Source: Streptomyces sp. yr375 (lineage in GTDB: Bacteria > Actinomycetota > Actinomycetes > Streptomycetales > Streptomycetaceae). Taken from it: a stretch of DNA of 64,000 bases. The stretch's first letter is position 1. Each line of letters begins with the position of its first letter. A program made the translations under genes and the position numbers. Under the pieces are notes generated by a model that had not been told where the DNA came from, made no database searches, and worked only from the letters and a program-made list of their open reading frames with translations. The stretch covers positions 248,001 through 312,000 of the forward strand of contig NZ_FOFF01000002.1 in NCBI RefSeq assembly GCF_900110755.1, given 5' to 3'. Positions 18,247-46,982 of the stretch are shown here, piece by piece.

Positions 18247-18447
18247 CGTTTATCCCCTTGCCTCTTCCCATTCCCTTTCTTCTTCCTCTTCTCATCCCAG
18301 TGTTGGGGTTTTCCGGGTCGATGGGACATGCAATTACCTTTGAGGGAACGGTGAATGTGGAATGCGAAACCACTATCCGCGTGTGGCGTGGCTGCGGGAT
18401 CGGCGTCACGATGGAAGGGACGCCTGTCATTTCGCAGGGAGGCCACC

Positions 18448-19584: not shown

Positions 19585-20973
19585 CTACCGCCGGTGCGCC
19601 AAGGGCACCCGGAGATCCACCAGCCGGAAGTCGTCGCCGCCCCGGGGGTCGATGTACGCGAGCGGGGCGTAGTGGTACGGCACTCCGTGCGGGCGGCGGC
19701 GCAGGGGCTGACCCTGGCGGGTGCGCGGCCATTCGACGTCGCCGGTGAGGACCCGGGCCGGGACGAGCCAGTAGTCGCCGTGGCGGTAGTTGCGCGGCTC
19801 GTCCTCCCCGGGGTGGAACCTGACCTGGACGCCGTCCTCCAGGGGCAGCCAGGTGCCCTCCCGCAGGAGCAGGCCCCTCTCGTCGCCCCCGTAGCCGTCG
19901 TCGCGGCCGCTCCTGCCGTGGTCCCAGCGGCGCAGGAACGGGCGGCGGCGCGGCACCTGACCGACTGTCCTGTCGTACGGGTCGTCCTCGGGCGGGCTGT
20001 CCAGTTCGACCCGGAACCCGGCGTGGTCGACCTTCCTGACCGTGTACAGGCGGCCGCAGCCCTCGTCGTACCGGTCCGACGCCCCCCGGCACACCGAGGC
20101 GTCGTCCAGCAGCTCCACCACGTCGCCCGTGTCCACGCCGAGCTTGTCGTCCCGGCCCAGGGTCTCCAGCTCCACCGACCGGCCGTCGACGGACCGCACC
20201 GGCAGCACCACGCAGCCGTTCTCCCGGGACCACTTGTACGTCGCCGTCCCCTCGCCGCCGCCCTGGTGCACCTCCACCCGGTAGAGCTGGTTCTCGGGCC
20301 CCCGGTACCCCGAGGACGCGGCGGACGAGGTGGACACGGTCGGGGCGTCGCCCGGCCCGTCGTCCGCCGGCCGTCCGGTCGCCGCGGAGAGCAGCCCGCG
20401 CGGCTCGAACGCGCCGCGGACGCGGTCCCGCAGGAAGTACGCGGCGCTGCGCATGTCGGGCACCGGCGCGTCCCGCCCCAGCGGGAGCACGCACACCTGC
20501 CACACCACCCGGCTGCGCGCGGTCGTGTCCGGGCCGTTCACGCCGAGCGCCACCTCACGGATCCAGGGCGCCTCCCACGCGGTGACCAGCCGCTCCCACA
20601 CCCGCAGGTACACCAGGAACGGCCCCGAAGGCAGTTGGTCGTCCTCGTGGTCGGGGTCGAGGTGGCCGTCGGGCTGCTGCCAGTAGTCGGTGCCGTCGCA
20701 CTCGCACAGGATGCCGTCGACGTACATGCGGCCCGGGGCCACGGTGAAGGTGTAGCCGTCGAAGTCGTCGACGCCGAAGCCGCCGAGGCCGTCCGCCTCA
20801 GGCGGGTAGGCGGCCGGCCCCATCAGGTCGGTGGCCAGCGTGCGCACGTAGTGCAGGAGGATCGCCGTCTGCTCGTTGATCTCGGCATCGAGCTGGACCC
20901 GGCCCTGCTGGGAGAGCACGGCGGAGAACCGCCGAGCGGGATCGAAGATGACGCGGGAGAAGTCGCCGTGCAT
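19585..20973 (-). CDS. DUF6519 protein of contractile injection locus
   Basis: A 462-residue protein with the DUF6519 N-terminal pattern (MHGDFSRVIFDPARRFSAVL...QQGRVQLDAEINEQ). Such proteins accompany baseplate and tail genes in actinobacterial phage-tail-like loci and may decorate the baseplate or act as a fibre-like adaptor; no activity is known. Mostly beta-strand predicted from alternation, with Arg/Asp-rich loops. AGGAAGC lies seven bases before the ATG. It is the last gene of the operon, 48 bp after the tail-I-like gene, and ends 3 bp from the convergent zinc-ribbon gene. Confidence 0.8.
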   Translation of the reverse strand: MHGDFSRVIFDPARRFSAVLSQQGRVQLDAEINEQTAILLHYVRTLATDLMGPAAYPPEADGLGGFGVDDFDGYTFTVAPGRMYVDGILCECDGTDYWQQPDGHLDPDHEDDQLPSGPFLVYLRVWERLVTAWEAPWIREVALGVNGPDTTARSRVVWQVCVLPLGRDAPVPDMRSAAYFLRDRVRGAFEPRGLLSAATGRPADDGPGDAPTVSTSSAASSGYRGPENQLYRVEVHQGGGEGTATYKWSRENGCVVLPVRSVDGRSVELETLGRDDKLGVDTGDVVELLDDASVCRGASDRYDEGCGRLYTVRKVDHAGFRVELDSPPEDDPYDRTVGQVPRRRPFLRRWDHGRSGRDDGYGGDERGLLLREGTWLPLEDGVQVRFHPGEDEPRNYRHGDYWLVPARVLTGDVEWPRTRQGQPLRRRPHGVPYHYAPLAYIDPRGGDDFRLVDLRVPLAHRR

Positions 20974-21021
20974 GCGTGTGCTTCCTGCCTGGGCCGGGGC
21001 GGACAGTGTCGGGGCCGCTCC

Positions 21022-23160
21022 TCAGGTCACGAAGAACAGCCCCGGGTCGCATCCGGCCGGTGTGTACTCGGCCAGCCGGGTGCGGAGATTGTCCTCCCGC
21101 TGCGGCTGGAACAGGTGGTGCAGCGCGCCGGGTTCCGAGCCGTTGTCGCCCCCGCGGCGGATCACCTCGGCGCAGTGGTCGGCGAGCCGGACGTAGTCGG
21201 GGGAGCCGTACCGGGTGCCGGCGAAGCGCAGTGCGCGCGCCCGGGCGCCGGAATGGTCGGGCTCGCAGTGGAAGCGGGCGGGCGTCGCGCTCTTCGCGGA
21301 CGGCAGCCAGCAGAACCGTACGGAGCCCTGGTCCCGGCGCTCGATGCGGACCTCGCCGGCCAGCAGGCAGTTCTCCAGCAGCTCCACGGCGTGGGCGCGC
21401 ACGGCGCCGATGACGGTGCAGCGGCGGGCCGTGAGGAGGACGTCGGCGGGGCCGCCGTCCGGGTCGCTGAGCGCCGTCGCCTCGCTGAGGGTCGCGTCCA
21501 GCACGCTGTCGTACACCTCGAGCCGCGGCGGCTCCCGCCCGTCGCCCCGCGCGGCGATTGCCACGGGGCCGAGGACGCTGTGCCGGATCTCGGTGCGGAC
21601 CGGGCCGCCGGAGATCTCCAGGCTCGGCGCGCCGGGCGCCAGGGGCGTGCCCCGGGACTCCAGTTCCCAGCCCGGCACGAACGTGCAGTGCCGGACGACG
21701 AGCCGGCCCACCCCGCCCCGCACTCGCACCATGCCGCCCGTCACCAGCAGCCCGTCCAGGACGAGCACCGCCGTCGCCCCGGCTCCGCTCTCGCGTCCGG
21801 TGATCGTCAGGGTGCGGGGGCGGTCGTCGTCGCGGCGGCCGGTCAGCCGGACGACCGGGCGGACGCCGTCGGCGGCGCGTACGGTGAGCCGGTCGCCGGG
21901 GTCGAGGCGCAGCTCGGTCAGGTCCTCGTACACCTCGTTGGCGGTGATCTCCACGATCGCCGCCGCCTTGTGCTCGTGCGCCCGCTTCTCCGCACGCCAG
22001 CGGCCGACCGCGTCGGCGATGGTGTGGTGGTTCTCGCCGGGACCCACCCGGTAGCGGTCCGTCGGGCCGGTCGCGGCGGGCTCCGGGCGCGGGTACTCGC
22101 CGCCGCCGAGGTCGCCGGAGAACGCGTGGTGGTACGTCACCCGCACCCCGTGCGCGGGAGCCGTGCCCGGCGCGAGCATGAGCCGGCCGAGCACCGGGTC
22201 GACGGCGACCTCCCCGGCGGCCAGCCGGAAACGCCAGTCGGAGAGGTCGGCGACGACGATCCGGTCCAGCAGCACGACGTCGTGCTCCTTGTCGGGGCCG
22301 GTCCACACGCACAGGCTCTTGCCCGGCCCGTAGTAGTCGTACAGGCGGTCCTTGAGGGCCCGGCGGCCGATGGGCTCCGGGACGTTCGTCTCGTCCGCGA
22401 TGTGGAAGCTCGACGGCTCGGGCACCGGCGCGGTGAACAGGGGCGTGTCGACGGCGAGCACGTTGAACGTGTAGCAGGCCCGGTCGCGGTCCAGGCAGTA
22501 CGCGGGCGCCCGGGTCACCGGGTAGGTGCGCAGCCGCCACAGGTGCAGGCCGACGGACTGGATGCCGTACCGGCCGACCCGGCGGGCCGAACCGGCGCGC
22601 GGCACCTCCACGGTGCGGGCCAGGGTGTCGAACGGCCCGCCCAGTTGGTCCAGCGCCCCCGCGTCCCGTACGTCGACCAGCGCGCCGCGCGTCAGCCTGC
22701 GGCGCGTGTCGGCCCCGTCGGAGGTGTAGCGGCGCACCGGCTGGGTGACGGACAGCAGCCGCCGGTACTCCACCACCCGGGCGGGCCACCCGGCCACCGC
22801 CGACGCGAGATCCTCCAGCAGCGCCAGGGTGCCCTTGCGGCGGCGGTTGACGACGGTGTCGGCGACGTCCCGGCGCGGTACGGCGGCGGCGGGCAGGCCG
22901 CTCGACCGCGCGGTGTCGTCGGACAGGGCGGCGGCGATCCGGGGCAGCAGCTCGTAGCCGACGAGGTCGCCGAGGTAGGGCACCACCCAGTCGTCGCATG
23001 TCTCGATGAACCAGTTGTCGTAGAGCTGCTCGATGTCCTCCCGCACGACCGCCGCCTGTTCGGCGACGACCGTCAGCAGCGCCCGCAGCGGGCCGCCCTG
23101 TTCCGCGTCGCGCCTGCGGTGCACGGCCGGCAGCAGCGCGTACAGCTCGTCCGGGGTCAT
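21022..23160 (-). CDS. Phage-tail-like baseplate/tail protein (tail protein I-like N-terminus)
   Basis: A 712-residue protein. The first 130 residues resemble tail protein I / P2 gpI-type sequences (LPAVHRRRDAEQGGPLRALL, then DNWFIETCDDWVVPYLGDLVGY), which cap the wedge of contractile baseplates. The long remainder is beta-rich and has repeated right-handed beta-helix-like turns in its second half. It may serve as receptor-binding or adhesion arm, since no separate fibre gene is present (inference). ATG overlaps the stop of the upstream baseplate gene (ATGA), fixing the start. Confidence 0.85.
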   Translation of the reverse strand: MTPDELYALLPAVHRRRDAEQGGPLRALLTVVAEQAAVVREDIEQLYDNWFIETCDDWVVPYLGDLVGYELLPRIAAALSDDTARSSGLPAAAVPRRDVADTVVNRRRKGTLALLEDLASAVAGWPARVVEYRRLLSVTQPVRRYTSDGADTRRRLTRGALVDVRDAGALDQLGGPFDTLARTVEVPRAGSARRVGRYGIQSVGLHLWRLRTYPVTRAPAYCLDRDRACYTFNVLAVDTPLFTAPVPEPSSFHIADETNVPEPIGRRALKDRLYDYYGPGKSLCVWTGPDKEHDVVLLDRIVVADLSDWRFRLAAGEVAVDPVLGRLMLAPGTAPAHGVRVTYHHAFSGDLGGGEYPRPEPAATGPTDRYRVGPGENHHTIADAVGRWRAEKRAHEHKAAAIVEITANEVYEDLTELRLDPGDRLTVRAADGVRPVVRLTGRRDDDRPRTLTITGRESGAGATAVLVLDGLLVTGGMVRVRGGVGRLVVRHCTFVPGWELESRGTPLAPGAPSLEISGGPVRTEIRHSVLGPVAIAARGDGREPPRLEVYDSVLDATLSEATALSDPDGGPADVLLTARRCTVIGAVRAHAVELLENCLLAGEVRIERRDQGSVRFCWLPSAKSATPARFHCEPDHSGARARALRFAGTRYGSPDYVRLADHCAEVIRRGGDNGSEPGALHHLFQPQREDNLRTRLAEYTPAGCDPGLFFVT

Positions 23161-26100
23161 GGAATCCTCCGCAGGATCAGCGTTCCGGGCACGGCCGGGT
23201 CCAGCAGCACCAGTTGGGCGGGGCGCAGCACCAGCCGCGGCAACGCGGCCGGTGTGGCCGGTGTGGCCGGGGTGGTGCCGACGGTGAGCAGGACCGTGGG
23301 CGCTTGCGCGGCGTCGACGACGGCGTTCGGGTCCGGCGGTCCGCTTCCCGCGGGGGCGGCGGCGGACGGTGTGCGGTCGCGTACCGCGCGCGGGCCGGCC
23401 GGGAGGGCCGGGACGAAGGCGGCGACGGACGGGTGTTCGGCGAACCGGACGACGTCGGCCGGGTCGGAGCCCTCCGGCACCCCGCCGAAGGCGTCCAGGT
23501 CCACGAAGTCGACGCCGGGCACCGCCTGCGCGGCGGCGATCACCGCGCTCTGGTACACGGGATGCCCCAGGTACGCGCCCCGGAAGCCCAGCCGGGCGGC
23601 CAGCGCCTCGCGCACCCGCCGCTCGACCTGCTCCGGGAGATGCCCGTCGGCCGTGCGCACGCCGAGCACCACCACCAGCCGGACCCGCTCACAGGGCTCC
23701 ACCCGCACCGGCAGCGCCGGGTCGCCGTACCGGCGCAGCGCGCCGCGCAGGGCGGCCAGCAGCGGGGAGGAGGCGTCGAGCGGGGCGTCGTCGGCGGCGA
23801 CGACGGTGACGTGCAGGATGGGCCGGCCGCCGTCCACGCAGCGGCGGGCGACGGCCTGGCCGACCCCCGCGAAGGCACGGGCGAAGGACTGGTGGTCGGC
23901 CACCGACACCAGGCGGTCGAACGCGGCGAGCCGCAGCGGGATCGTCTGCCGGGTGCGCGCCGGGCCGTCGGCGTCCGCGCCGCCCGTCGCGGGCAGCGGG
24001 TTGGTGACCCCGCTGACCCCGAACGGCCTGCTCACGAGCTGGTTGATCCGCCCGGCCGCGACATTGCCCGCGAGGCCGCCGCCGACCCGGTAGCGGGCGG
24101 TGACGTTCTCCGTGCCGGTCGGCGGGCGGGCCCCGTGCCGGCCGTCGCCGAACTCCACCGCCGCCCGCCCGTCGACGCCCGCGCGCAGCCGGAACACCTG
24201 GTCGAGCGGCCCCTCCTCGCCCAGGTCCACGGTCCGCCGCCAGGCCACGCCGTCCACCCGGACGGTGATGTCCTCCTCGCCGCCGTCGGCGCTCACCGAC
24301 GGCAGCCAGACCAGCGGCCCGCGCCGCAGCCCGAACACCTGACCGGACCGGTCGGCGGCGCCGCTGCCCAGCACCTCGGCGACGGTCTCGCCCGCGGTCG
24401 CCGTGACCACGTTGCCGTGCACGACGACGCTGTCGCGCCGGTAGCGGTGCGCGAGCGGCGCGGTCAGCCGCAGCGTCGTCCGCACCCGGTCGTCGAAGGA
24501 CGTCCCGTCGAAGGCATGGCGCACCCCCGCCAGGACGGCCAACTCCGCGCCCGCCACCCCCGCGCCGCCCCCGGGCACGACGTCCGTGCGCTCCCCGGAG
24601 ACGATGACCAGCCGGCCGGCGGCCAGTCCCTCGAACGTGTCGTCCAGGGCGACGGCGTCCCCCGCCACGTCGGCGGGATCGGGCGCGGCGGCCGGTGTGA
24701 GCGGCTCGCCCGCCGCCCACACGGTGGTGGCCCGCCGCACGGCCATGTCCGCGCAGTCCACGGTCCACGGCTCGGCCAGCCGCAGCCGCGTCACCCGTAC
24801 GGCGTCCACGTCGTTCGCGACGGACAACTGGCCGACCTCGACGACCCGGATCACCCGGGTGCGCGACCGGCCCGCCACCCGCACCGCGAGCCAGCTCCCC
24901 GGCTGGATCTCCTCGTGCACCGCGTCCAGCAGCAGCACGTCGCCCGGCAGCGCGCCCCCGCCCTCCGCCTGGGCCGCAGCCGCTCCGCGCAGCAGCCGCA
25001 GGACCCGGGCGTCATCCGGGATCGACGCGCCCAGCGGGGTGGCGACCACCCGGAAACGGTGCACGCCCGGCGCGGTGACCGGGGGCGCGACGGCGGACAG
25101 CGCCGCGTAGAGGGATGCGGCGACGCCGGGCCCGTTGCCCGCGAGGAGACGGGGCAGCGCGTCGGATCCGGCCCCCAGGGCGTCGGTCACCGCGGGCGCT
25201 GTCCGGCGCGGCGGCTCGCCCCGGCCGAGCGCGTCCAGCAGGGGTTCGACCGCGTGCTGCACCCGCCCGTCCGGGTCGGCGAGGTCCCGCAGCAGCGCCC
25301 GGCCGCCGGCTGCCGCCGCCCGCTCCGTCGCCCCGGCCAGCCGGCGCACGGCGTCCTGTACGGTCGCCAGCCGGACGGCCGCCCGCTCGGCCAGCTTGTC
25401 GACGTCCAGGTCGCCGCCGAGCCCGGCGAGACGGTCGTGCAGCCGCCGCAGCCTGCGGTCGAGCCGGGCCGCGAAGGTGTCCGGGTCGCGCAGCTCCTCG
25501 GCGCGCTGCCGGACCTCGCGCAGCAGCGTCAGCAGCTCCTCGAACGGCCCCTCGGACCGCGCCCGGCGCGCCGCGTCCTCCAGGTCCTCGCGCAGCGCGT
25601 CCACCGCGTTGTCCAACTGCCCGGCCGCGTCCGGCACCCGCAGCAGCACCGTGGTCCGCCCCCGCGCCGGATCGGGGTGCGCGCTCTCCACCACCCGGGT
25701 GAGGTTCAGCCGGGCGTCGGGGTAGGCGAACAGCAGCCGGTCACCGGGGCGCAGGGCGGGCTGGACCCCCTCGACGTCCAGAGAGCGGACGCGGATCGCG
25801 ACGTCGGCGGTGAGGGCGGGCGGCCGGGTGGCGCGCACCGGCAGCCGGTTCCACTCCGCCCGCGCGGCGAGGTCCCCGGCGGTCTCGAAGACCACGGGCA
25901 GCGCGCCGGGCTCCGGCTCGCTCTTCACCTGCGAACCGGCCGGCACGACACACGACGTGCCCGGATCCAGTGTGTAGGCGAGGTGGGCGGCGGCCGCGAG
26001 CGCGGGGCGCGGCCGGTGCCCGACCAGCCGCCCGAGCCGGACCAGCGACTCGGGCTCCGCCGCCGTGCGCAGGAACCCCTCGTCGGCGATCCGCTCCTGA

Positions 26101-26348
26101 TAGAAGGTCAGCACGTCGGCGACGACCGCCCAGGCGTCGAGCAGGGCGATCGAGGGATCGTCCGGCTCCCGCGTCGTCAGCCCGGCCAGCGGCCCGCGGT
26201 CACCGTCGTCGGCGCCGACGGCGGGCAGCCGGGCCAGCATCGCGTCGAGGAACTGCCGGTGGCCGCCCACCCGGTAGGACAGCGCGGGCAGCCCGGGACG
26301 GTTCCACACCGGCGGCGGACCCGGTCGGCCGGCGGGGCAGTCGGTCAT
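23157..26348 (-). CDS. Putative baseplate assembly protein (J-like, large)
   Basis: A 1063-residue protein of the contractile-injection 'putative baseplate assembly protein' type. The N-terminal motif VLTFYQERIADEGFLRTA near residue 90 and the late Baseplate_J-type region (SVADHQSFARAFAGVGQAV, then a segment with GDPALPVRVEPCERV) are diagnostic. It should form the wedge ring between tube hub and sheath. Residues 240-350 hold a coiled helical insert. It is a paralogue-like partner of the neighbouring 947-residue gene. Start ATG (MTDCPAG) overlaps the upstream stop as ATGA, with GAGGTGG four bases upstream. Confidence 0.87.
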   Translation of the reverse strand: MTDCPAGRPGPPPVWNRPGLPALSYRVGGHRQFLDAMLARLPAVGADDGDRGPLAGLTTREPDDPSIALLDAWAVVADVLTFYQERIADEGFLRTAAEPESLVRLGRLVGHRPRPALAAAAHLAYTLDPGTSCVVPAGSQVKSEPEPGALPVVFETAGDLAARAEWNRLPVRATRPPALTADVAIRVRSLDVEGVQPALRPGDRLLFAYPDARLNLTRVVESAHPDPARGRTTVLLRVPDAAGQLDNAVDALREDLEDAARRARSEGPFEELLTLLREVRQRAEELRDPDTFAARLDRRLRRLHDRLAGLGGDLDVDKLAERAAVRLATVQDAVRRLAGATERAAAAGGRALLRDLADPDGRVQHAVEPLLDALGRGEPPRRTAPAVTDALGAGSDALPRLLAGNGPGVAASLYAALSAVAPPVTAPGVHRFRVVATPLGASIPDDARVLRLLRGAAAAQAEGGGALPGDVLLLDAVHEEIQPGSWLAVRVAGRSRTRVIRVVEVGQLSVANDVDAVRVTRLRLAEPWTVDCADMAVRRATTVWAAGEPLTPAAAPDPADVAGDAVALDDTFEGLAAGRLVIVSGERTDVVPGGGAGVAGAELAVLAGVRHAFDGTSFDDRVRTTLRLTAPLAHRYRRDSVVVHGNVVTATAGETVAEVLGSGAADRSGQVFGLRRGPLVWLPSVSADGGEEDITVRVDGVAWRRTVDLGEEGPLDQVFRLRAGVDGRAAVEFGDGRHGARPPTGTENVTARYRVGGGLAGNVAAGRINQLVSRPFGVSGVTNPLPATGGADADGPARTRQTIPLRLAAFDRLVSVADHQSFARAFAGVGQAVARRCVDGGRPILHVTVVAADDAPLDASSPLLAALRGALRRYGDPALPVRVEPCERVRLVVVLGVRTADGHLPEQVERRVREALAARLGFRGAYLGHPVYQSAVIAAAQAVPGVDFVDLDAFGGVPEGSDPADVVRFAEHPSVAAFVPALPAGPRAVRDRTPSAAAPAGSGPPDPNAVVDAAQAPTVLLTVGTTPATPATPAALPRLVLRPAQLVLLDPAVPGTLILRRIP

Positions 26349-29906: not shown

Positions 29907-29913
29907 GGTCTCC

Positions 29914-31939: not shown

Positions 31940-31950
31940 GGCCGGTCTCC

Positions 31951-32020
31951 TCTCGCATCTGCTCATACCTGCGTATACCTGCGTATATCTGCTTGTATCA
32001 ACTCTCATCCGCTCGTATAG
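31951..32020. repeat. Seven 10-bp periodic repeat units in the operon
   Basis: The 70 bases divide exactly into ten-base units: TCTCGCATCT, GCTCATACCT, GCGTATACCT, GCGTATATCT, GCTTGTATCA, ACTCTCATCC, GCTCGTATAG. The middle units are near-identical and the outer ones diverge. It is the longest gap in the tight part of the injection-system operon and is AT-richer than its neighbours; the unit length equals one DNA turn. Confidence 0.75.
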
Positions 32021-32646
32021 CCGACTGTTCCCGGGCCGTAGCCGACGAGTGCGGCGAAGCGTTCCCTGCCCTGCTGGTACTGGAGGTACAACCCGCCGGC
32101 CTTGTGGTCGAAGCCCACGTCGTCGACGGTGAGGACCCGCACGGTGAGCGTCACCCGCGCCCTGATCGGACTCAGCTCCCCGTCGTACGCCTCCTCCGTC
32201 ACATCGAGGTCCAGCATCCGCACCGGCAGCACCCGGTGCGCCCCGAGCACCAGCACGGGCAGCGGGGCCTGGACGGGGGCGATCTCCAGGATTCCCTGGG
32301 CAGCCAGGTCGTTCTGCCGGGTCAACTGCGCGGCCGTGGGCGCGACCGCCGTCTCCAGCGCGGACAGCATCCCGAACAGCCCGGACCCGGCGGGCGGCGC
32401 GGGACCGCCCGCCGGGGCCACCTGGTCCGTCGCGTCGAACTCCGCGTCGATCCGGAACGTCTCCCGGGGCGGCCCCTGCAACCGCAGCGCCTCCAGCCGG
32501 TCACCGGCGTCGGCGCCGATGCCGCGCGGCTGGAGCGTACGGGTGACGCTGTCGGGGTTGTACTGGAACGGCACGACCCGCAGCACCCGCCCCTGCTCGG
32601 GATCGAGGAACACGAACCCACCGCGCCGCGGCACAGCTCCGGTCAT
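32005..32646 (-). CDS. Tube/baseplate adaptor protein of injection system
   Basis: A 213-residue protein. It opens GFVFLDPEQGRVLRVVPFQYNPDSVTRTL, the pattern of the tail-adaptor family (CIS tube protein, LysM-partner group) which lies between inner tube and hub. The C-terminal part MLDLDVTEEAYDGELSPIRARVTLTVRVL is also conserved. It begins ATG overlapping the upstream stop (ATGA). It precedes the LysM gene as in other loci. The ATGA context and the following 65-bp gap separate it from the hub genes. Confidence 0.8.
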   Translation of the reverse strand: MTGAVPRRGGFVFLDPEQGRVLRVVPFQYNPDSVTRTLQPRGIGADAGDRLEALRLQGPPRETFRIDAEFDATDQVAPAGGPAPPAGSGLFGMLSALETAVAPTAAQLTRQNDLAAQGILEIAPVQAPLPVLVLGAHRVLPVRMLDLDVTEEAYDGELSPIRARVTLTVRVLTVDDVGFDHKAGGLYLQYQQGRERFAALVGYGPGTVGYTSG

Positions 32647-32903
32647 GACGCCGCCTCCTCGGTCGCCATCGCCCGGTGGACGGCGCGGGCGATATGCCGG
32701 GCGAGGGCGGCGAGTTCGCCATCCACGGGTACGGGTACGCGAGCGGGTGCGGGCGTGAGGCCGAGGAGTACGGCGAGTTCCGTCTCGACGGCCGCGCAGA
32801 GCGCCGCCCGGGACACGTGGGCGGCGGCCGGGTCCAGCACGAGCCGGCGGATATGCAGTTCGACCCGGGTAGTGCCCAAGCCCATGTCGATGTCCATGCT
32901 CAT
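32643..32903 (-). CDS. Small conserved injection-system protein
   Basis: An 86-residue protein between DUF4255 and adaptor genes. It has one beta-type segment near the N-terminus (RVELHIRRLVLD) and helices later (RAALCAAVETELAVLL, then LAALARHIARAVHRAMA). It has no signal peptide. The segment I-x-RLV resembles the C-terminal strand of the adjacent 738-residue protein (HITIDRLVV), suggesting that both attach to the same partner (inference). It starts ATG overlapping the DUF4255 stop and ends in an ATGA overlap with the adaptor gene. Confidence 0.72.
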   Translation of the reverse strand: MSMDIDMGLGTTRVELHIRRLVLDPAAAHVSRAALCAAVETELAVLLGLTPAPARVPVPVDGELAALARHIARAVHRAMATEEAAS

Positions 32904-34129
32904 GTGATCACCAGTGCCGTGTCGGCGTCGAAGCGCTCCGCGTCCGGGGCGGCCACCGGGCTGTCCACGCCGTCGACGCGCAGCCGCAGCGGATACCGCC
33001 CCGGCAGGCCGCCCGAGGCCAGCCGGAACCGCAGCTTGCGCGTGGCCCGCGAGAAGGGCTCGGCGAGCACGGGCAGATCCGCCACGAGCAGCTCGGCCCG
33101 CTGCCCGGGGTGCACGGCGGGAGTGCAGTCCAAGGACAGCACCATCGCCCCCTTCGGGCCCTTGGCCCCCTTCGCGGCGCGTACGACGGTCAGCGGCAGG
33201 GCGCTGGTGATGCGCGGCGCGATCTGGAGGGTACGGGGCGCGGTGGTCCGTTCGCTGCCGTCGGGAGCGGTGAGGACGACGACCACCGACCAGTGGCCCG
33301 CGCCGAGTTCCTCGCCCAGGGTGACCCGCACGGCGGCGGCCCCGTCGGAGCGGGCGGGCAGGACGACGGGCCCGCCGAGCAGCGGATGCGTAAGACGGAC
33401 GCTGGCCACCCCCGCCCCCGCCCCGAACCCGCTGCCGCTGAGGACGACGTCGGTGCCCGGCGGCGCGATCGCGGGCAGTACGGCGTGCAGCACCGGCCAC
33501 GGTTCGGCCGCCGTCGGCGCGGCCTCCGGACCGGCCCCGGCGGCCCCGCGCCGCAGGACCGGCAGGGGAGTGCGGCCCGGCACGGAACTGTCGACGAGCA
33601 CGACCCGGGCCTCGTACGGCACGGACAGCCGGTAGTCGTGGCCGAGCGCCGTCCACAGCCGCCACATCTCGTCGGTCGGCAGCACCGCCGGGGTGACCTT
33701 CACCGGCTCGGGCTGTAGATGCAGATCACTGAAGTCGGCGGCGGCCTTGAGGGCCGTGGCGGGCAGCTCGGGCCGGTCGTGCAACGCCGACATCGCCGCG
33801 CAGAGCAGCCGTTCGGGGAGGGTGGAGTCCTGGTCGCGGGGCGCGTAGCCGGTGAGCAGGTAGTGCAGGACGAGGGGCAGCGCGGGGTGGTGGGTCTCAC
33901 CGGGGTGCGTGTCGAGGGGGTCGGTGTTGCGCCAGGCCGCGTCGATGGCGGTGCGGTAGAGGAAGACGTTGAGCGTGGGCACCGGTCCGTGGCCCTCGTC
34001 GCCGACGTCGTCCATGCCGCCGGGATGACGCACCGTCACCACCCCATCCGGCACCGCCCGGCGCACGGCCTCCTGCAACACGGCCCGCAAAGTCTCCGTC
34101 ACGGCGGCAACAGCCAGCACGTCACTCAC
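32900..34129 (-). CDS. DUF4255 (Pvc16/Afp16-like) cap protein
   Basis: A 409-residue protein whose first 190 residues match the DUF4255/Pvc16 N-terminal domain (VPTLNVFLYRTAIDAAWRNTD, then HYLLTGYAPRDQDSTLPERLL). In eCIS, the Afp16 type caps the tube and sheath end and helps set length. Residues 225-400 form one or two IPT/Ig-like beta domains. The start is GTG overlapping the 738-residue gene stop (GTGA). It is read together with the downstream small protein through an ATGA overlap. Confidence 0.87.
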   Translation of the reverse strand: MSDVLAVAAVTETLRAVLQEAVRRAVPDGVVTVRHPGGMDDVGDEGHGPVPTLNVFLYRTAIDAAWRNTDPLDTHPGETHHPALPLVLHYLLTGYAPRDQDSTLPERLLCAAMSALHDRPELPATALKAAADFSDLHLQPEPVKVTPAVLPTDEMWRLWTALGHDYRLSVPYEARVVLVDSSVPGRTPLPVLRRGAAGAGPEAAPTAAEPWPVLHAVLPAIAPPGTDVVLSGSGFGAGAGVASVRLTHPLLGGPVVLPARSDGAAAVRVTLGEELGAGHWSVVVVLTAPDGSERTTAPRTLQIAPRITSALPLTVVRAAKGAKGPKGAMVLSLDCTPAVHPGQRAELLVADLPVLAEPFSRATRKLRFRLASGGLPGRYPLRLRVDGVDSPVAAPDAERFDADTALVIT

Positions 34130-36342
34130 GCCCGCCTCCCGAGGTACTCCTCCAGCGACATCTGCGACCGGCGTGGGGGAGTTGGGGCGGCGGAAGCGTT
34201 TGGCCGGGGGCGGGTGGTGTGGACGACGAGGCGGTCGATGGTGATGTGCAGGACGGTTTGGGTGGGGGCTGCTGTGGGTGCGTTGGGGGGTTCTGGAGGG
34301 GGTGCTGATTCGGGGGTGGGGGATGTTCGGGGCGTGGGGCGGGTGGGGTGCGCGGTGTGCGTGGGGCGTTCTGGTGCCGTGGGGGCGGCGGACCTCGCGG
34401 TGCGGACCTGGAGGTGAGGGTGCGGGGCGAGTGGCGGGGGGCTCGGAGGGGTGTTCGAGGGGGCGCTGACCGGGGGCGCGAGCGGGATGGGGGCTGCTTG
34501 GGAGGGGGCCGGGGAGGGGGCCGGGGACGAGGAGCGGGGCTGGAGCGGGGGCGGTTCCGGGAGGTGCGGGGGTGTGGCGGTCCGGGACGGGGGTGGCTCG
34601 GAGGGCGGCAAGGGAGGCATAGGTGAAGCGGTGTGGGACCGGTGTGGCTGAGTGGCGGCTGGGGGTGCGGTGGTCCGGGACGGGGCTGGTGGGGAGACGG
34701 GCGGACGTGTGCTGGCCTCGGGCGGGGACGGTTGGGAGAGGCGCGGGGGTGTGGTGATCCCGGACGGGGGCGGCTGCGAGACGGGCGGAGGTGAGGTTGT
34801 CTCGTATGGGGGTAGCGGGGAGGGGGACGGGGGTGTGGTGGTCCCGGATGGTGACGGCGGGGAAGCGGACGGAGGTGAGGTGGTCTCGGATGGGGGCAGC
34901 GGGGAGGCGGGTGGAGGTGAGGTGGTCCCGGATGGTGACGGCGGGGAGGCGGGCGGAGATGAAGTGGTCTCGCGCGAGGGCGAGGGCGAGGGCGAGGCTG
35001 GGGTCGGGGTCGGGGTCGGGGTCGGTTCGGTGAGGTGCGGAGGCGAGGCGGGGGCGGACCGGGATGGTTCGGCGGCGCTCGGAGACGCGGTGGCGATGGA
35101 CGGCGGTGGGTCGGAGGCGACAGTCGTCGCTTCCGGTGCCGTCGGCCTCGCGGCAGCCTCGACCGGGGGCACCTTGTTGTGTGCCCGCTCGGCGATCGTC
35201 AAGGGGCTGGGCTGGACAGCGCGCTCGGCGAATCCTCCGACGCGCTTGTCGCCGGTTGCCGGGCTGTGGGGCGGTGCCGTGCCTGGGGACTGGGGCGACG
35301 TGTTCGGGCTGAGTGGCGGCGAGCCTGCGCCTGGAGGGCGCGGTGGTGCGTTCCGCCGTGTCTCCGGCGTGGCCAGATGCCCGCTGGACGAGGCCGGGTC
35401 ACGCGGTGCGGCGTCCTTGACCTGGGAGGACGGGCTCGGCTTGCGGCGCGCGGTCGCCTCGGTGGCGCGGGGCGTTGCCGGGGTGCCCGGTGAGGTGTTC
35501 TCGGCCTCGGCCTCGGCCTCGGCCTCGTGAGATGCGGTGGGGCGGACGTGCTGCGAGGTGCCCTCGATCTGCGGGGACGGGGCCGTGCCGTGAGATGAGC
35601 TGGCCTCGGCTGGCGGAGGCGTGGCAGGGCTGTGGGGTGACGTGCGCTGGAGTGTGCGTGGCGTGGCCGAGTCCCGGGGCGGCGCGGATGGCTCCTGGGG
35701 CTGCGCGGCCGGTGCCCGACGCGGCGCGCTTTGCGCCTCGGGTGGCGCGAGGGCGGCTCGCCGGGATGTGTCGGGCGTCGTCCTTGGAACGGCGACCGGG
35801 CTGCTGTCCGCTGACGTGGCTCGGGGGGAGGCGTGCGGTGAGGGTGCCCCGGCCTTGGGCGGAGTTGTCGTCGGACCGCCGTGTGGGGACGGGCTCTTGG
35901 CCTTAGGGTGCCGGCTCGGTGTCTGTGGCGAGACGGCGGAGTTCTCACCGATCGCCTCGGCGCTCCGGCCCGGCGCGTGGCGCGGTGTCACCGGTGTGGT
36001 GCGGGGAGTCGGCCGTGCCCGTTCCGCGCCCTGGGGTGTGTGCCCCGGGAGGTCCGCACTCGGCGTGGGGCGCGCGTCAGCCGTGGGAACGGGAACCTCC
36101 ACGGCTGGCCCCGCGCCGAGCAAAGAAGAGGAGTGCACGGAGACGTCCGACTCACCGGCCACGCCGACCTCTTGAGCCGCACCGGCATCCGCAACACCCG
36201 TACCCGCTTCCCCCACCGGCATGTCACCGCTCGGCACATCACCGCTCGGCAGGCGTCGTGCGCCCGGGTCGAAGATGTTCGGGGTGAGCGGCCTGAGCCG
36301 GGGCCCTGGTGCCCGCAGTACCCGGTCCACGAAGTCGTTCAT
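34126..36342 (-). CDS. Very long Pro/Ser/Thr-rich disordered injection-system protein
   Basis: A 738-residue protein with two short ordered ends. The N-terminus (MNDFVDRVLRAPGPRLRPL, then TPNIFDPGARR) and C-terminus (TVLHITIDRLVVHTT and MSLEEYLGRRA) resemble the conserved ends of a proline-rich hypothetical protein found in many injection-system loci. Everything between, about 650 residues, is low complexity with repeats such as SPPSASPPSPSGTTTPP and an EAEAEAEAE run. No hydrophobic segment or catalytic motif is visible. It may be a scaffold, a cargo docking arm or an unrecognised tape measure; none is proven. The ATG overlaps the upstream stop (ATGA) and the gene is co-translated with its neighbours. 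Confidence 0.75.
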   Translation of the reverse strand: MNDFVDRVLRAPGPRLRPLTPNIFDPGARRLPSGDVPSGDMPVGEAGTGVADAGAAQEVGVAGESDVSVHSSSLLGAGPAVEVPVPTADARPTPSADLPGHTPQGAERARPTPRTTPVTPRHAPGRSAEAIGENSAVSPQTPSRHPKAKSPSPHGGPTTTPPKAGAPSPHASPRATSADSSPVAVPRTTPDTSRRAALAPPEAQSAPRRAPAAQPQEPSAPPRDSATPRTLQRTSPHSPATPPPAEASSSHGTAPSPQIEGTSQHVRPTASHEAEAEAEAENTSPGTPATPRATEATARRKPSPSSQVKDAAPRDPASSSGHLATPETRRNAPPRPPGAGSPPLSPNTSPQSPGTAPPHSPATGDKRVGGFAERAVQPSPLTIAERAHNKVPPVEAAARPTAPEATTVASDPPPSIATASPSAAEPSRSAPASPPHLTEPTPTPTPTPASPSPSPSRETTSSPPASPPSPSGTTSPPPASPLPPSETTSPPSASPPSPSGTTTPPSPSPLPPYETTSPPPVSQPPPSGITTPPRLSQPSPPEASTRPPVSPPAPSRTTAPPAATQPHRSHTASPMPPLPPSEPPPSRTATPPHLPEPPPLQPRSSSPAPSPAPSQAAPIPLAPPVSAPSNTPPSPPPLAPHPHLQVRTARSAAPTAPERPTHTAHPTRPTPRTSPTPESAPPPEPPNAPTAAPTQTVLHITIDRLVVHTTRPRPNASAAPTPPRRSQMSLEEYLGRRA
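34200..35527. repeat. G-rich low-complexity DNA with hexamer tandem repeats
   Basis: The plus strand over this stretch is strongly G-skewed, opposite the Pro/Ser/Thr codons of the minus-strand gene. It contains GGGTCG hexamers in tandem at about 35000-35024 and four TCGGCC units at 35501-35524. Runs of four or more G at short intervals could form G-quadruplexes on the plus strand. Confidence 0.7.
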
Positions 36343-37085
36343 CCGGCGCTCGCCTCCAGATAGAACTGCCGCCGCGCCGGACTGATCGACAGCACGTCGG
36401 CTTCGGACCAGCCGTAGGCCCGCGCCAGAGAGTGCACCTCGTGCAGCAACTTGCGTGCGTAGCCGGAGACTTCGGTCCACAGATGGTCGCCGATGTCGAG
36501 CGCGGCCTCCCAACGGTGCGCGCACTGCGGGCAGTTCAGCACCAGTACGGTGTCGGCCCCCGGGTCGAGTTCCGGGAGCAGCCGGGCCACCTGTTCGAGA
36601 ACCTCTTCGGACAGGTCGTCGTCGACAGGCGGAGGACTGACGTGTACGACGCACCGGCGCAGCAGGCTGCGGCGCGCCCGGGGCGTGGTGGCGTCGACGG
36701 CCCGGACGTCGCGGCCGGTGAGGGCCCGGTACGTGACCGTCATACCGTCTGTGGTCAGCGTCGCCGTAGCGGGACTTGGACCCGCACCGGCGTCCGAGCC
36801 CACCGCGCAGGGCCGCAACTCCTCGGCCCCGACGGTGACATCGAGGCTGTCACCGCACTGCGGGCAGTCCGCCGCGCAAGGCAGCGCGTCACCGAACGCG
36901 CCGCGACGCAGCTCCAGCAGAAGGGCGTTGACGGCGCTCAACGGCAGGTCCGCGACGTCCTGACCGGGCGGTGCCGCCACCGAGGCGAGCAGGAGGGAGC
37001 GGGCCGCCGGGGTACCGCCGAGCCCGCCCTCCCACACCTCGAGGACGTTCGCCTCCGTCAGCCGACGCGGCATGCGGTCCGTCAC
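36339..37085 (-). CDS. Zinc-ribbon injection-system assembly protein (T4 baseplate-protein-like)
   Basis: A 248-residue protein with two CPQC motifs (CPQCGDSLDV near residue 74 and CPQCAHRWEAAL later) that can bind one zinc. A central region follows that reads like the family described as T4 bacteriophage base plate protein, found after the tube gene in many such loci. GTG is used as start because it overlaps the tube stop (GTGA); ATG 12 bases later is an alternative. Its stop overlaps the next gene by ATGA. Confidence 0.78.
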   Translation of the reverse strand: MTDRMPRRLTEANVLEVWEGGLGGTPAARSLLLASVAAPPGQDVADLPLSAVNALLLELRRGAFGDALPCAADCPQCGDSLDVTVGAEELRPCAVGSDAGAGPSPATATLTTDGMTVTYRALTGRDVRAVDATTPRARRSLLRRCVVHVSPPPVDDDLSEEVLEQVARLLPELDPGADTVLVLNCPQCAHRWEAALDIGDHLWTEVSGYARKLLHEVHSLARAYGWSEADVLSISPARRQFYLEASAG

Positions 37086-37603
37086 CCGGCGGTGTCGCTG
37101 AACTGCGGCTCCTGCGGCGGGTTGGTGTGCTCCCGCACCCAGCCGTGGTGCTCCACCTTGATGTGCTCGAAGGCGACGGCGTTGGACCCGGCGTCGAGTT
37201 CGGGAAGCCCCTGGTACTCGGAGACCCAGGCCTCGTGGACGGAGTAGGACAGCACCTGCTGCCCACCCTCGTCGAAGACGTCGATGACGAGGTCCCGTCT
37301 GAAGTCCTTCAGGGAGGTCTCCAGACCGCCCGCCGAGTTCTTCAGGCTCCAGACCCGGTTGGCCCATTCCTCGAAGGCGGTGTCGATGGTGCAGCCGCGC
37401 TCCAGGGTGATGGCCTCGTACTCGGTGCGACCGGGCAGCTTACGGCTGGTGCCCGGGTCGCCGCCGTCGCGGTGCCGGATGACCTCCGTGGTGCGTTTGA
37501 GGCCGCTGACCTTGCTGATTCCGGCGATATAGGCGGTCTCCCCGCTGAACTTCACCCGGAAGCGGAAGTTCTTGAAGGGGTCCCGGCGCGTGACTTCCGG
37601 CAT
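37082..37603 (-). CDS. Inner tube protein (phage tail tube, gp19-like)
   Basis: A 173-residue tail-tube protein, the family of T4 gp19 and Hcp-like tubes. It has RDPFKNFRFRVKFSGETAYI, VSGLKRTTEVIRHRDGGDP and the typical pattern ITLERGCTIDTAFEEWAN. Hexamer rings stacked inside the sheath are the known role. Strong GGAGGAGG sits seven bases before the ATG, as expected for the most abundant subunit. It starts 14 bp after the sheath gene. Only one tube gene is present; many related loci have two. Confidence 0.92.
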   Translation of the reverse strand: MPEVTRRDPFKNFRFRVKFSGETAYIAGISKVSGLKRTTEVIRHRDGGDPGTSRKLPGRTEYEAITLERGCTIDTAFEEWANRVWSLKNSAGGLETSLKDFRRDLVIDVFDEGGQQVLSYSVHEAWVSEYQGLPELDAGSNAVAFEHIKVEHHGWVREHTNPPQEPQFSDTAG

Positions 37604-37617
37604 CGGTCGTCCTCCTC

Positions 37618-39438
37618 CTAGACCTGGATCTGTCCGGCGAGCTGCTGGATGTGCACGATCACGAACTCCGCGGGCTTCAGCGGGGCGAAGCCCACGTGGA
37701 TGTTGACGATGCCGCGGTTGATGTCGTTCTGCGGGTTGGTGTCCTTGTCGCACTTGACGAGGTAGGCCTCCTGGGGAGTCCGGCCCTGGAACGCGCCCGC
37801 GCGAAACAGCGAGTTCATGAACGCGCCGACGTTCAGCCGGACCGACGCCCACAGCGGTTCGTCGTTCGGCTCGAACACCACCCACTGCGTGCCCCGGAAC
37901 AGGCTCTCCTCGATGAAGAGGGCCAGCCGGCGCACCGGGAGGTACTTCCACTCGTCCGCGAGCCGGTCCGCCCCGCGCAGGGTGCGGGCTCCCCAGGCGA
38001 CCGGTCCGGCGGCCGGCAGCCGCCGCAGACAGTTCACGCCGACCGGGTTCAGCCGCCCGATCTCCAGATCGGTCAGCGGCACTTCGAGATCACTGACCCC
38101 GCTCAACGAGGCGTCCGTACCGGCCGGCGCCTTCCACACACCCCGCTGGACGTCCGTCCGCGCGAGCACGCCGGCCATCACGCCGCAAGGCGGGAAGGGC
38201 TGGAGGGTGCCATTGAGGAGCGGGTCGGGGGAGAGGATGCGGGGGTAGTAGACCGCCGCGTTCTTGTCGGCTTCGTCGCCCTGGACTTCTACGAGCTTGT
38301 CGAGGACGGTGTCCAGGCCACCCGTCCAGCTCGGGGGCGGGTCGACCAGAAGGATCGCCCGGCGTTGGACGCACAGTCTCTTCGCCTCGCCCCGAAGGGA
38401 CGCCGCGTTGTCGCCGAGCAGGTGGGCGTCGGGCAGACACAGGATGTTGAAGATGTCCGTCTTCAACAACTGGTACAGCCCTGTCTTCTGGGCCGGGTCG
38501 CCCCTGTACGCATTTGCGTCGGGGGGAGTCTTGTCTCCCGCGGCGCCGCCGCCCCCGGTCGGGGCGTAGTAGGTCGGCTGGGCCCCCGGTGGCTGGTCCT
38601 CCGGCGCGACCTTGAACGGATCGGGACCCTTGTCTTTCGGCGCTGGCGAGTTCTCGAGCGGCACCGCGAAGGGGGAGGAACTGGGGACCACGCGGACCAG
38701 CCGCGAAGACGCGAGGAGATGCTCCAGATTCTGCGGACTGTCCTGCTCGACGCTGACGTTGAGGTATCTCTCCTCGGCGCCGGTCTCCATGTCACGGACC
38801 GTCAGGTTGAACAGCTTGCGCTGCTCACCCTTCGGTGTGGGCTGCGTGTCGTGGTCGACCCGGGCTCGGAGATTCAGCCCCCATCGCCCCGGAGAGGCGG
38901 CGATGAGGACAGGGGTGTTGGGGGAGCCCACGTCGGCGCGGGCGGGGGGCGCTGCTTTGGTGCTGCTGCTGCCGCCCGCGTCGCCCGCGCTCCGCTTCTT
39001 GTTCTTGTCGTCGGAAGCTGAATCATCTCCCGAGGTGCCTGCGGGACCAGCGGCTTCCCCGCCCTCGCCCGCCGCTGCCGCAGCGGGTGCCGGTGCGGGC
39101 GCGGGCGACGACGGGGTGGGCCCCTTCGTCGACTGGCCGGCCGTGAGGGAGAAGGAGACCTGTTCCTCACCGGCCTTCGCGATCCTGACGATCTCGGCCT
39201 CGCTGCCACCGTTCAGATAGAACTGGTAGACCGCGTAACTCATCGGGCAGTTCGACTGCAGTCCGCCGAAGACGGCCTCGTAGTCGGCCCAGCCGGTGAT
39301 GTGCACCGGCCGGTCGGCCGGGCCGCGCGGCGCGTAGCCGACGAAGGCGGCGATCGAGGTCGCCACCCCCGTGATCGTTCTGACGGAACTCTTGACCTCG
39401 TCGATGTACACGCCCGGATAGGTGGCGTTCACCGGCAT
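37618..39438 (-). CDS. Contractile sheath protein
   Basis: A 606-residue phage tail sheath protein. Conserved ends are NATYPGVYIDEVKSSVRTITG (residues 4-24) and the late region with VVFEPNDEPLWASVRLNVGAFMNSLFRAGAFQG followed by IVHIQQLAGQ, which are typical. Two inserted low-complexity regions stand out: residues 100-172 (Ala/Pro/Gly/Ser-rich) and around 250-330 (Pro/Gly/Asp-rich), probably on the sheath surface. The ATG (MPVNATY) has GGGG five bases upstream. It is the first gene of the operon; the AT-rich patch at about 39551-39572 could be its promoter, but no clear elements are seen. Confidence 0.93.
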   Translation of the reverse strand: MPVNATYPGVYIDEVKSSVRTITGVATSIAAFVGYAPRGPADRPVHITGWADYEAVFGGLQSNCPMSYAVYQFYLNGGSEAEIVRIAKAGEEQVSFSLTAGQSTKGPTPSSPAPAPAPAAAAAGEGGEAAGPAGTSGDDSASDDKNKKRSAGDAGGSSSTKAAPPARADVGSPNTPVLIAASPGRWGLNLRARVDHDTQPTPKGEQRKLFNLTVRDMETGAEERYLNVSVEQDSPQNLEHLLASSRLVRVVPSSSPFAVPLENSPAPKDKGPDPFKVAPEDQPPGAQPTYYAPTGGGGAAGDKTPPDANAYRGDPAQKTGLYQLLKTDIFNILCLPDAHLLGDNAASLRGEAKRLCVQRRAILLVDPPPSWTGGLDTVLDKLVEVQGDEADKNAAVYYPRILSPDPLLNGTLQPFPPCGVMAGVLARTDVQRGVWKAPAGTDASLSGVSDLEVPLTDLEIGRLNPVGVNCLRRLPAAGPVAWGARTLRGADRLADEWKYLPVRRLALFIEESLFRGTQWVVFEPNDEPLWASVRLNVGAFMNSLFRAGAFQGRTPQEAYLVKCDKDTNPQNDINRGIVNIHVGFAPLKPAEFVIVHIQQLAGQIQV

Positions 39439-45856: not shown

Positions 45857-45902
45857 CGCCCCCGCCCCGCACACCCTCCGCGCCGAGAACCCCGCGCCCG
45901 CC

Positions 45903-46922: not shown

Positions 46923-46982
46923 GCCCGTTGGTCCTTTCCCGCGCGCACTGTGCTGTCAGTGGCGATCGTTACTATCCGGAGC

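What the first reader, a model, noticed from the sequence alone, without database searches (positions are those of the whole stretch)
19585..39438. Contractile injection locus without AAA+ ATPase, recognisable tape measure or fibre
Sixteen minus-strand genes include sheath, tube, DUF4255, LysM, hub, spike, PAAR, gp25, two J-like proteins and DUF6519. I found no Walker A/B AAA+ gene and no long coiled-coil or hydrophobic tape-measure protein in this stretch or within 10 kb on either side. Known eCIS loci normally carry an AAA+ ATPase. Either length control and assembly work differently, or the missing genes lie elsewhere.
Basis: partly seen in the sequence, partly recalled or inferred. Interest (0 to 1): 0.72.

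Follow-up and report, generated by a model that had tools for sequence, protein, structure and literature searches.

The report
Contractile injector without its cargo loader
A bacterium, likely a Streptomyces, carries a phage-tail-like injection machine that lacks the ATPase and tape-measure-like effector genes its relatives keep at the same spot, and two close relatives show no such ATPase anywhere in their assemblies, so the machine likely assembles and fires without a loaded payload.

Summary
The cluster (16 tightly packed genes) belongs to a widespread contractile injection system (CIS) family, probably the Streptomyces davawensis type. In relatives an AAA+ ATPase and often an eCIS_core effector (in Streptomyces a 2,100-2,300 aa tape-measure-like protein) sit between the Pvc16 cap gene and the baseplate genes. 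In the window and 8 Streptomyces/Kitasatospora relatives both are gone. In nine such genomes, eCIS-type ATPases number one fewer than Pvc16 genes; two genomes have none. The window's genome has one, beside the Pvc16 of a second CIS on another contig. Structural genes look constrained, so decay is unlikely. Published knock-outs show that CIS particles form without the ATPase but lose payload or activity; I therefore read this as a CIS stripped of its loading module, assembling ATPase-free and firing without a classical payload (inferred). 'No fibre' is softened: the 712-aa protein has a predicted tailspike-like beta-helix. A disordered Pro-rich protein next to the tube genes, expanded in this clade, is the best ruler candidate (untested). 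New variant of a known kind.

The parts
37618..39438 (-). tail sheath protein (606 aa)
   Evidence: PF17482 E 5e-10, PF04984 E 1e-9; best solved relative by sequence 8bky/9gtp, E 2e-79
37082..37603 (-). tail tube protein (173 aa), the only tube gene found
   Evidence: TIGR02241 E 2e-37; PHROG tail tube E 5e-20
36339..37085 (-). T4-baseplate-like protein with CxxC motifs (248 aa)
   Evidence: phrog_150 baseplate hub E 6e-6; PF12322 below cut-off
34126..36342 (-). Pro-rich, probably disordered protein (738 aa), conserved ends, length-variable middle; candidate ruler or lumen protein (untested)
   Evidence: same ends in relatives of 210-1127 aa; composition; no family match
32900..34129 (-). Pvc16/DUF4255 tube cap (409 aa)
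   Evidence: PF14065 E 3e-42
32900..32903 (-). pvc16 stop / small86 start overlap (ATGA): the place where relatives have AAA+
   Evidence: junction sequences; gap 290-436 bp from pvc16 to afp7N in 8 relatives versus 2058 bp or more in AAA+ loci
32643..32903 (-). small conserved protein (86 aa) that follows AAA+ in relatives
   Evidence: clear copies in Actinobacteria, Proteobacteria and other phyla among the hits (some listed hits there are wrong frames)
32005..32646 (-). Afp7-like baseplate/tube-initiator protein (213 aa)
   Evidence: family found in 64 of 73 loci; name by position and recall, no library match
31616..31939 (-). LysM-like baseplate protein (107 aa)
   Evidence: phrog_46 baseplate hub E 1.7e-5
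30486..31619 (-). baseplate hub protein (about 377 aa)
   Evidence: conserved position; weak phrog_350 tail, E 0.03
29914..30489 (-). spike with OB domain (191 aa)
   Evidence: PF04717 E 3e-16; TIGR01646
29556..29906 (-). PAAR-like tip (116 aa)
   Evidence: PF14107 E 9e-4, below cut-off
29185..29550 (-). gp25-like sheath initiator (121 aa)
   Evidence: phrog_43 E 2e-11
26345..29188 (-). J-like baseplate protein 1 (947 aa)
   Evidence: TIGR02243 E 2e-89
23157..26348 (-). J-like baseplate protein 2 (1063 aa)
   Evidence: TIGR02243 E 1e-81
21022..23160 (-). 712-aa protein: helical N-terminus, beta-helix C-terminal half (predicted tailspike-like)
19585..20973 (-). DUF6519 protein (462 aa), weakly phi812-baseplate-like
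   Evidence: PF20129 E 1.5e-66
18934..19581 (+). convergent neighbour: zinc ribbon + Pro-rich linker + C-terminal hydrophobic anchor (215 aa); candidate membrane adaptor (inferred)
   Evidence: next to DUF6519 in all 8 ATPase-less relatives and in L018; solo copies exist without a CIS

Best explanation
This is a reduced branch of a widespread contractile injection system family (likely the Streptomyces davawensis type) that lacks the AAA+ gene and the neighbouring tape-measure-like effector gene its relatives carry between the tube cap and baseplate genes, and it likely assembles without the ATPase and fires without a classical payload. Shown: the in-place absence, the intact rest of the cluster with low dN/dS, the presence of both genes in relatives, and two assemblies with no eCIS-type ATPase. 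Inferred: the particle assembles (as ATPase knock-outs of other CISs do), its work is puncture by tube and spike rather than delivery of an unfolded effector, and the expanded Pro-rich protein next to the tube genes takes over length setting or fills the tube. Also inferred: the tail-anchored zinc-ribbon protein beside the cluster docks it at a membrane, as CisA is proposed to do for the S. coelicolor CIS.
For: AAA+ sits between pvc16 and the small86/afp7N genes in 27 of 35 loci where this interval is visible; the other 8 of 35 are close relatives of the window (26 of 73 loci could not be judged). Across nine ATPase-less genomes, eCIS-type AAA+ (over 300 bits) versus Pvc16: G000 1/2, G385 1/2, G251 1/2, G030 2/3, G392 2/3, G393 0/1, G394 0/1, G395 1/2, G396 1/2; AAA+ controls G160 2/2, G060 1/1. 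G393 and G394 have one sheath gene each, full length. Family AAA+ (best match 555 bits or more) in 78 of 80 other Streptomyces genomes with a copy of the 712-aa protein, in some on another contig; the two exceptions are a 79%-complete genome and a genome whose cluster shows only three genes in 35 kb. In five AAA+ Streptomyces clusters mapped, the order is pvc16-AAA-small86-eCIS_core protein; three read to their end are 2139-2320 aa; one, read from residue 226 on, hits PHROG tape measure proteins at E 3e-13. eCIS_core linked in 30 of 39 AAA+ loci and 0 of 8 ATPase-less ones (own HMM built from nine of these loci), nor near C50 in the window's genome. Clean junctions. Rough dN/dS 0.04-0.58. Literature: PMC10020575 and PMC11495950, passages on knock-outs.
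Against: No experiment on this cluster; a particle is not shown. A review (PMC8910223, passage) states that the eCIS ATPase is essential for assembly. In the window's genome the C90 AAA+ could act on both systems. The S. coelicolor ATPase knock-out lost biological activity (PMC10020575), so an ATPase-less machine might be inert unless it works differently. The S. davawensis locus itself was not fetched, so that assignment is inferred. 9 of 39 AAA+ loci also show no linked eCIS_core protein. The Pro-rich protein also occurs, shorter, in the five clusters that keep the tape-measure-like effector, so it is not simply its substitute. Copies of the tail-anchored protein lie without a CIS in 5 of 11 genomes that have it, which weakens the docking idea. 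Completeness of G393 and G394 is not told by the tool; ribosomal S12, the sheath and generic AAA+ genes are found in both.
Confidence: 0.6

Rival explanations
1. The ATPase is borrowed: the AAA+ of the second CIS in the same genome serves both machines, so the C50 cluster only looks ATPase-less.
For: 7 of 9 ATPase-less genomes have another CIS with its own AAA+; the C90 protein is a homologue (412 bits to the family profile).
Against: G393 and G394 have one Pvc16, one sheath, no eCIS-type AAA+ and no eCIS_core protein. Each AAA+ found in the other seven lies beside the Pvc16 of another cluster.
Confidence: 0.18
2. The cluster is a decaying relic: it lost the ATPase and effector and no longer makes a working particle.
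For: Loss of two genes known or thought to matter for function; remnants of the family do exist (G100 shows DUF6519-U712-J2 only in the 35 kb fetched; L042 has broken frames).
Against: All 16 genes are open with tight overlaps; compared with four relatives they show pN below pS, tube dN/dS about 0.07-0.16; pvc16 and small86 overlap in the same ATGA in six of nine loci; carriers differ by up to about 40% in J-like protein 1 and keep the set.
Confidence: 0.14
3. It is a tailocin or defective prophage tail, not a CIS.
For: No AAA+; sheath has distant phage relatives (853 records, all under 60% identity).
Against: Pvc16 cap gene present; no phage record of 50,697 matches the 712-aa protein at E 1e-3; of 10 neighbouring proteins scanned, PHROG hits at E 1e-5 are one endolysin-like (the M23 protein) and one of unknown function on a transporter, none for head, portal or terminase; the family has AAA+ and eCIS_core genes in loci of several phyla.
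Confidence: 0.04

Closest known systems
Streptomyces davawensis CIS (Nagakubo 2024, PMC11126660; abstract, outline, passages and section 6 read)
   Same: A CIS clade spread over Actinobacteria, Proteobacteria and Chloroflexota, distant from the S. coelicolor CIS; a DUF4157 effector related to tape measure proteins lies immediately upstream of the baseplate genes; the AAA+ relatives mapped here have that layout.
   Different: The window's branch lacks AAA+ and the tape-measure-like effector. The S. davawensis locus was not compared by sequence here.
S. coelicolor CIS (subtype IId; PMC10066040, PMC10020575, PMC12237407; passages read)
   Same: Sheath, tube, Pvc16, spike and baseplate; also lacks a conventional fibre and a typical tape measure; its ATPase knock-out still makes normal-looking particles.
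   Different: Carries an AAA+. The window's genome has a separate AAA+ CIS on C90, whose sheath scores 275 bits against the window's; that C90 is of the S. coelicolor type is an inference.
Photorhabdus PVC and Pvc15 (PMC11495950, part 1 of 6 read)
   Same: Homologous cap and tube logic; particles form without Pvc15.
   Different: Wild-type PVC has Pvc15, a fibre and payloads with signal peptides.
R-type tailocins / contractile phage tails (PMC12210884, passages; partly recalled)
   Same: No AAA+ ATPase.
   Different: These have a tape measure and a fibre and no Pvc16; the window has Pvc16 and no recognised tape measure.

Membership tests
eCIS (as described in PMC10020575: phage-tail-like region with AAA+ ATPase and Pvc16_N terminator) | sheath, tube, spike and baseplate genes | tested here: met
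eCIS (as described in PMC10020575: phage-tail-like region with AAA+ ATPase and Pvc16_N terminator) | Pvc16_N terminator | tested here: met
   PF14065 E 3e-42
eCIS (as described in PMC10020575: phage-tail-like region with AAA+ ATPase and Pvc16_N terminator) | AAA+ ATPase in the gene cluster | tested here: not met
   no hit in the 64-kb window; none in the seven upstream and four downstream flanks (13-19 kb stretches) fetched from ATPase-less relatives
eCIS (as described in PMC10020575: phage-tail-like region with AAA+ ATPase and Pvc16_N terminator) | linked eCIS_core effector (common, not universal) | tested here: not met
   the only PF13699 hit of the genome is on C74, not C50
S. davawensis-type CIS | conserved core gene order from sheath to DUF6519 | tested here: inconclusive
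   order shared with AAA+ Streptomyces clusters that fit the published description; the S. davawensis sequence itself was not compared
S. davawensis-type CIS | tape-measure-related DUF4157 effector upstream of the baseplate genes | tested here: not met
   pvc16-small86-afp7N are contiguous
R-type tailocin / phage tail | tape measure gene | tested here: not met
   no tape measure family among matches of the cluster proteins scanned; sequence only
R-type tailocin / phage tail | absence of Pvc16 | tested here: not met
   Pvc16 present
tailspike-like beta-helix (712-aa protein) | parallel beta-helix fold | tested here: met
CisA-like membrane adaptor (18934-19581) | bitopic membrane protein encoded just after the baseplate genes | tested here: inconclusive
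   hydrophobic C-tail computed for the window and seen by eye in the 10 aligned rows; adjacent gene, but convergent strand and no sequence comparison with CisA

The most novel reading that the evidence does not exclude
A contractile injection system that runs without any ATPase and without a loaded protein effector: its unfoldase became dispensable once the folded tape-measure effector was lost, an intrinsically disordered, Pro-rich protein was lengthened to set tube length or fill the tube instead, and a tail-anchored zinc-ribbon protein docks the particle at a membrane for puncture.
Probability: 0.18. Interest if true: 0.82.

Novelty: new variant of a known kind. Interest (0 to 1): 0.6.

Why it matters
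An AAA+ ATPase is described as an invariable mark of eCIS clusters (PMC10020575, passage) and its presence or absence is one of the filters in a metagenome screen (PMC12210884, passage). A conserved branch without it suggests that the ATPase belongs to an effector-loading module that evolution can drop, and it gives natural strains with no eCIS-type ATPase or eCIS_core protein found (G393/S. sp. DI166, G394/S. sp. TSRI0107) in which to ask what an empty injector does and what sets tube length without a tape measure.

Tried and rejected
Rejected: 'the ATPase is in the window but was overlooked' (family HMM no hit; tblastn only chance hits, best E 0.40). Rejected: 'a cryptic gene hides in the cluster' (no gap over 65 bp). 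Rejected as general: ATPase in trans. Considered: one loss against two. The tree needs two changes because L018 (AAA+) is sister to L019+L020, and the L018 ATPase groups with that of L024 (100/100), so it is probably inherited; but a tree with all ATPase-less rows as one clade is not rejected (AU p 0.116). Junctions (ATGA overlap in window and L013-L017, GTGA in L033, 107- and 68-bp spacers in L019 and L020) fit more than one loss and do not prove it. Considered: the M23-like protein (17725-18246) and the 191-aa protein (18355-18930) as payloads; homologues sit at the same place only in L013, L015, L016 (the 191-aa gene has a weak match in L014), so they cannot be general. Led nowhere: solved structures by sequence for the 712-aa protein (none); PHROG and NCBIfam for the Pro-rich protein; a relatives search with the L025 Pro-rich protein gave only hypothetical or unnamed proteins; plasmid records hold only partial, under-60% matches to the 712-aa protein. 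The beta-helix reading rests on the second aligner, which re-aligns Foldseek's own list. A motif filter found no Pro-rich gene in the five tape-measure-bearing clusters; reading the frames shows that all five have one, of roughly 230-250 aa.

Limits: 26 of 73 loci show neither an AAA+ nor the full interval and are not in the ATPase count. The identity of G385, G251, G030, G160 and G060 with L014, L015, L033, L018 and L024 rests on equal contig lengths. In G393 the sheath lies on another contig than the rest of the cluster, because contigs end there. The spacer-length test (8 against 16 loci, Mann-Whitney p 2.7e-6) is not corrected for kinship, its values were typed and window coordinates, L042 has broken frames and no Pro-rich frame was recovered in L014 (assembly gap), L042 and L079. 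dN/dS values are simple pairwise counts. For the 80 genomes, linkage of ATPase and cluster was not checked one by one.
Full report
What is there. The window lies at G000:C50:248001-312000 of a 9.07-Mb genome; the window is 72% GC and the nearest named relatives of the cluster are Streptomyces (organism inferred). Between 19585 and 39438 on the minus strand are 16 genes in tight overlaps: sheath, tube, T4-baseplate-like, Pro-rich, Pvc16, an 86-aa protein, Afp7-like, LysM-like, hub, OB spike, PAAR-like, gp25, two TIGR02243 J-like proteins, a 712-aa protein and DUF6519. No AAA+ lies in the cluster or in the 64-kb window.

Relatives put the missing genes at one spot. A scan with J-like protein 1 brought 73 loci from several phyla; most have hits to the ten genes from DUF6519 to the Afp7-like gene, and the order was laid out for 16 of them. 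In 35 loci the interval from pvc16 to the Afp7-like gene is visible: 27 hold an AAA+ ATPase there (Walker A GPSGTGKT and Walker B in the alignment of 13), and 8 do not; 26 of 73 loci are cut off or could not be judged, and 12 more show the AAA+ without pvc16. The 8 are Streptomyces atratus, S. hydrogenans, S. cyaneus, S. spp. DI166, TSRI0107, NRRL F-6131, ISL-10 and Kitasatospora indigofera, close relatives of the window. Their gap is 290-436 bp, against 2058 bp or more in AAA+ loci.

A tape measure is there too in Streptomyces relatives. In five AAA+ Streptomyces clusters that I mapped (second copies in G251, G160 and G030; G284; G006), the order is sheath-tube-T4bp-spacer-pvc16-AAA-small86-eCIS_core protein; in the three read to its end that protein has 2139-2320 residues and the Afp7-like gene follows after 0.6-0.8 kb. 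Part of one, from its residue 226 on, matches PHROG tape measure families (best E 3e-13). This is the layout published for the S. davawensis CIS, whose effector Tme joins a DUF4157 domain, a tape-measure-like region and a nuclease, lies just upstream of the baseplate genes, and whose sheath clade spans Actinobacteria, Proteobacteria and Chloroflexota (PMC11126660; abstract, outline, passages and section 6 read). I did not compare the S. davawensis sequence itself.

Whole genomes. With a profile of the family ATPase, the nine ATPase-less genomes have one eCIS-type AAA+ fewer than they have Pvc16 genes, and each AAA+ found is within about 2 kb of another cluster's Pvc16: G000 1/2, G385 1/2, G251 1/2, G030 2/3, G392 2/3, G393 0/1, G394 0/1, G395 1/2, G396 1/2. 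The AAA+ controls are even: G160 2/2, G060 1/1 (threshold over 300 bits, the next AAA+ scores are below 100). G393 and G394 have no eCIS_core protein either; in the other seven, the hits lie on other contigs or, in G251, more than 500 kb away. Completeness of G393 and G394 is not told; both have ribosomal S12 and a single full-length sheath gene of this family. Of 100 genomes among 392 Streptomyces that hold the 712-aa protein, six were used above; of the other 94, 80 were given to the tool and 78 have the family ATPase (best match 555 bits or more; linkage not checked one by one); the exceptions are a 79%-complete genome and one whose cluster shows three genes in 35 kb. Loss is thus rare and clade-bound.

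How it was lost. In the window and L013-L017 the pvc16 stop and small86 start overlap in the same ATGA; L033 has a GTGA overlap; L019 and L020 have 107- and 68-bp spacers. On the core-gene tree the AAA+ locus L018 is sister to L019+L020 (95/96), and its ATPase groups with that of L024 (100/100), in line with the core tree. Two losses are therefore favoured; a single clade is not rejected (p 0.116). L018 keeps the ATPase but has no linked eCIS_core gene, and L024's genome has one just upstream of the sheath, which suggests that the effector left the site before the loader. eCIS_core genes are linked in 30 of 39 AAA+ loci and 0 of 8 ATPase-less ones; the loci are related and the HMM was built from nine of them, so this is a pattern and not an independent test.

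Not decay. Pairwise comparisons of the window with L013, L014, L015 and L017 give dN/dS of 0.07-0.16 for the tube and at most 0.58 for the other cluster genes compared (simple counts).

How it works (inferred from here on). PVC particles form without Pvc15 but lack payload (PMC11495950, part 1 of 6 read), and the S. [quoted passage not shown] A review says the ATPase is essential for assembly (PMC8910223, passage); the two knock-outs speak against that. An ATPase-less cluster should therefore assemble but not load unfolded effectors by the known route. I commit to a payload-free injector that works by puncture. Two features may fit this. First, the Pro-rich protein: conserved ends (DFVxRxL, PGPRLRPL, FDP; IxIDRLxV ... 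SLEEYLGRR in the window's clade), starting within the end of the T4-baseplate-like gene, middle of variable length: 407-1127 aa in the window and six ATPase-less loci with a readable frame against 210-393 aa in twelve AAA+ loci; spacers 1217-3377 bp in 8 against 317-1175 bp in 16. The five clusters with the tape-measure-like effector have spacers of 711-779 bp (subtracted) with a shorter homologue, so the Pro-rich protein is older than the loss and lengthened in this clade. It stands in the usual tape-measure position after the tube genes (recalled). Second, a convergent gene 3 bp from the DUF6519 stop encodes a zinc ribbon, a Pro-rich linker and a C-terminal hydrophobic anchor; it is at that place in all 8 ATPase-less relatives and in L018 and was not found in the other loci held at that point. 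CisA of S. coelicolor is a membrane protein needed for firing and encoded just after the baseplate genes (PMC12237407, passages). Against this: five of 11 Streptomyces genomes with this protein have it with none of the searched CIS genes nearby.

Known or new. Papers seen call the AAA+ an invariable or critical feature of eCIS clusters (PMC10020575, PMC8910223, passages), and gut Bacteroidales clusters carry an FtsH-like ATPase gene with DUF4157 and DUF4255 genes (PMC7394362, passages). My searches showed no report of an ATPase-free eCIS in listings and passages seen; the 2019 subtype paper did not come up in the library. By the strict definition the cluster fails one defining feature, so I file it as a reduced variant that works like a CIS. 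A missing tape measure and fibre are already reported for the S. coelicolor CIS (PMC10066040, passage) and a missing tape measure for a haloarchaeal CIS (PMC11566945, passage), so those two alone are not new.

Noticed in passing
G000:C90:26709-37371 (L087, L088): A second CIS in the same genome with its own AAA+ (frame of 851 aa) beside its Pvc16.
   Followed up: partly
window 17725-18246 (-) and 18355-18930 (+): An M23-peptidase-like protein and a 191-aa protein of unknown family beside the cluster, at the same place in L013, L015 and L016 but not in all relatives.
   Followed up: partly
G251, G160, G030: These genomes carry both a clade member (ATPase-less in G251 and G030, AAA+ in G160) and a separate AAA+ plus tape-measure-effector cluster of the same family.
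   Followed up: yes
L014, about 3300-3420: Pro-rich gene of S. hydrogenans contains a run of N and short repeats, probably an assembly problem.
   Followed up: no
L042 (Massilia sp. H-1): Cluster with many broken reading frames, either sequencing error or decay.
   Followed up: no
L129 (G188): Rearranged relative: AAA+ and an eCIS_core gene lie upstream of the sheath instead of after pvc16.
   Followed up: no
G100:C1:1187000-1222000 (L178, L179): A remnant of the family: only DUF6519, the 712-aa protein and J-like 2 were found.
   Followed up: partly
window 45648-48665 (+): A 1005-aa leucine-rich-repeat protein close to the CIS; no PADLOC match.
   Followed up: no
window 40905-42971 (-): PAS-GAF-SpoIIE phosphatase two genes upstream of the sheath; possible regulator, untested.
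   Followed up: no
L017 1649-5029: The longest Pro-rich protein seen (1127 aa), in a genome with no eCIS-type ATPase.
   Followed up: partly
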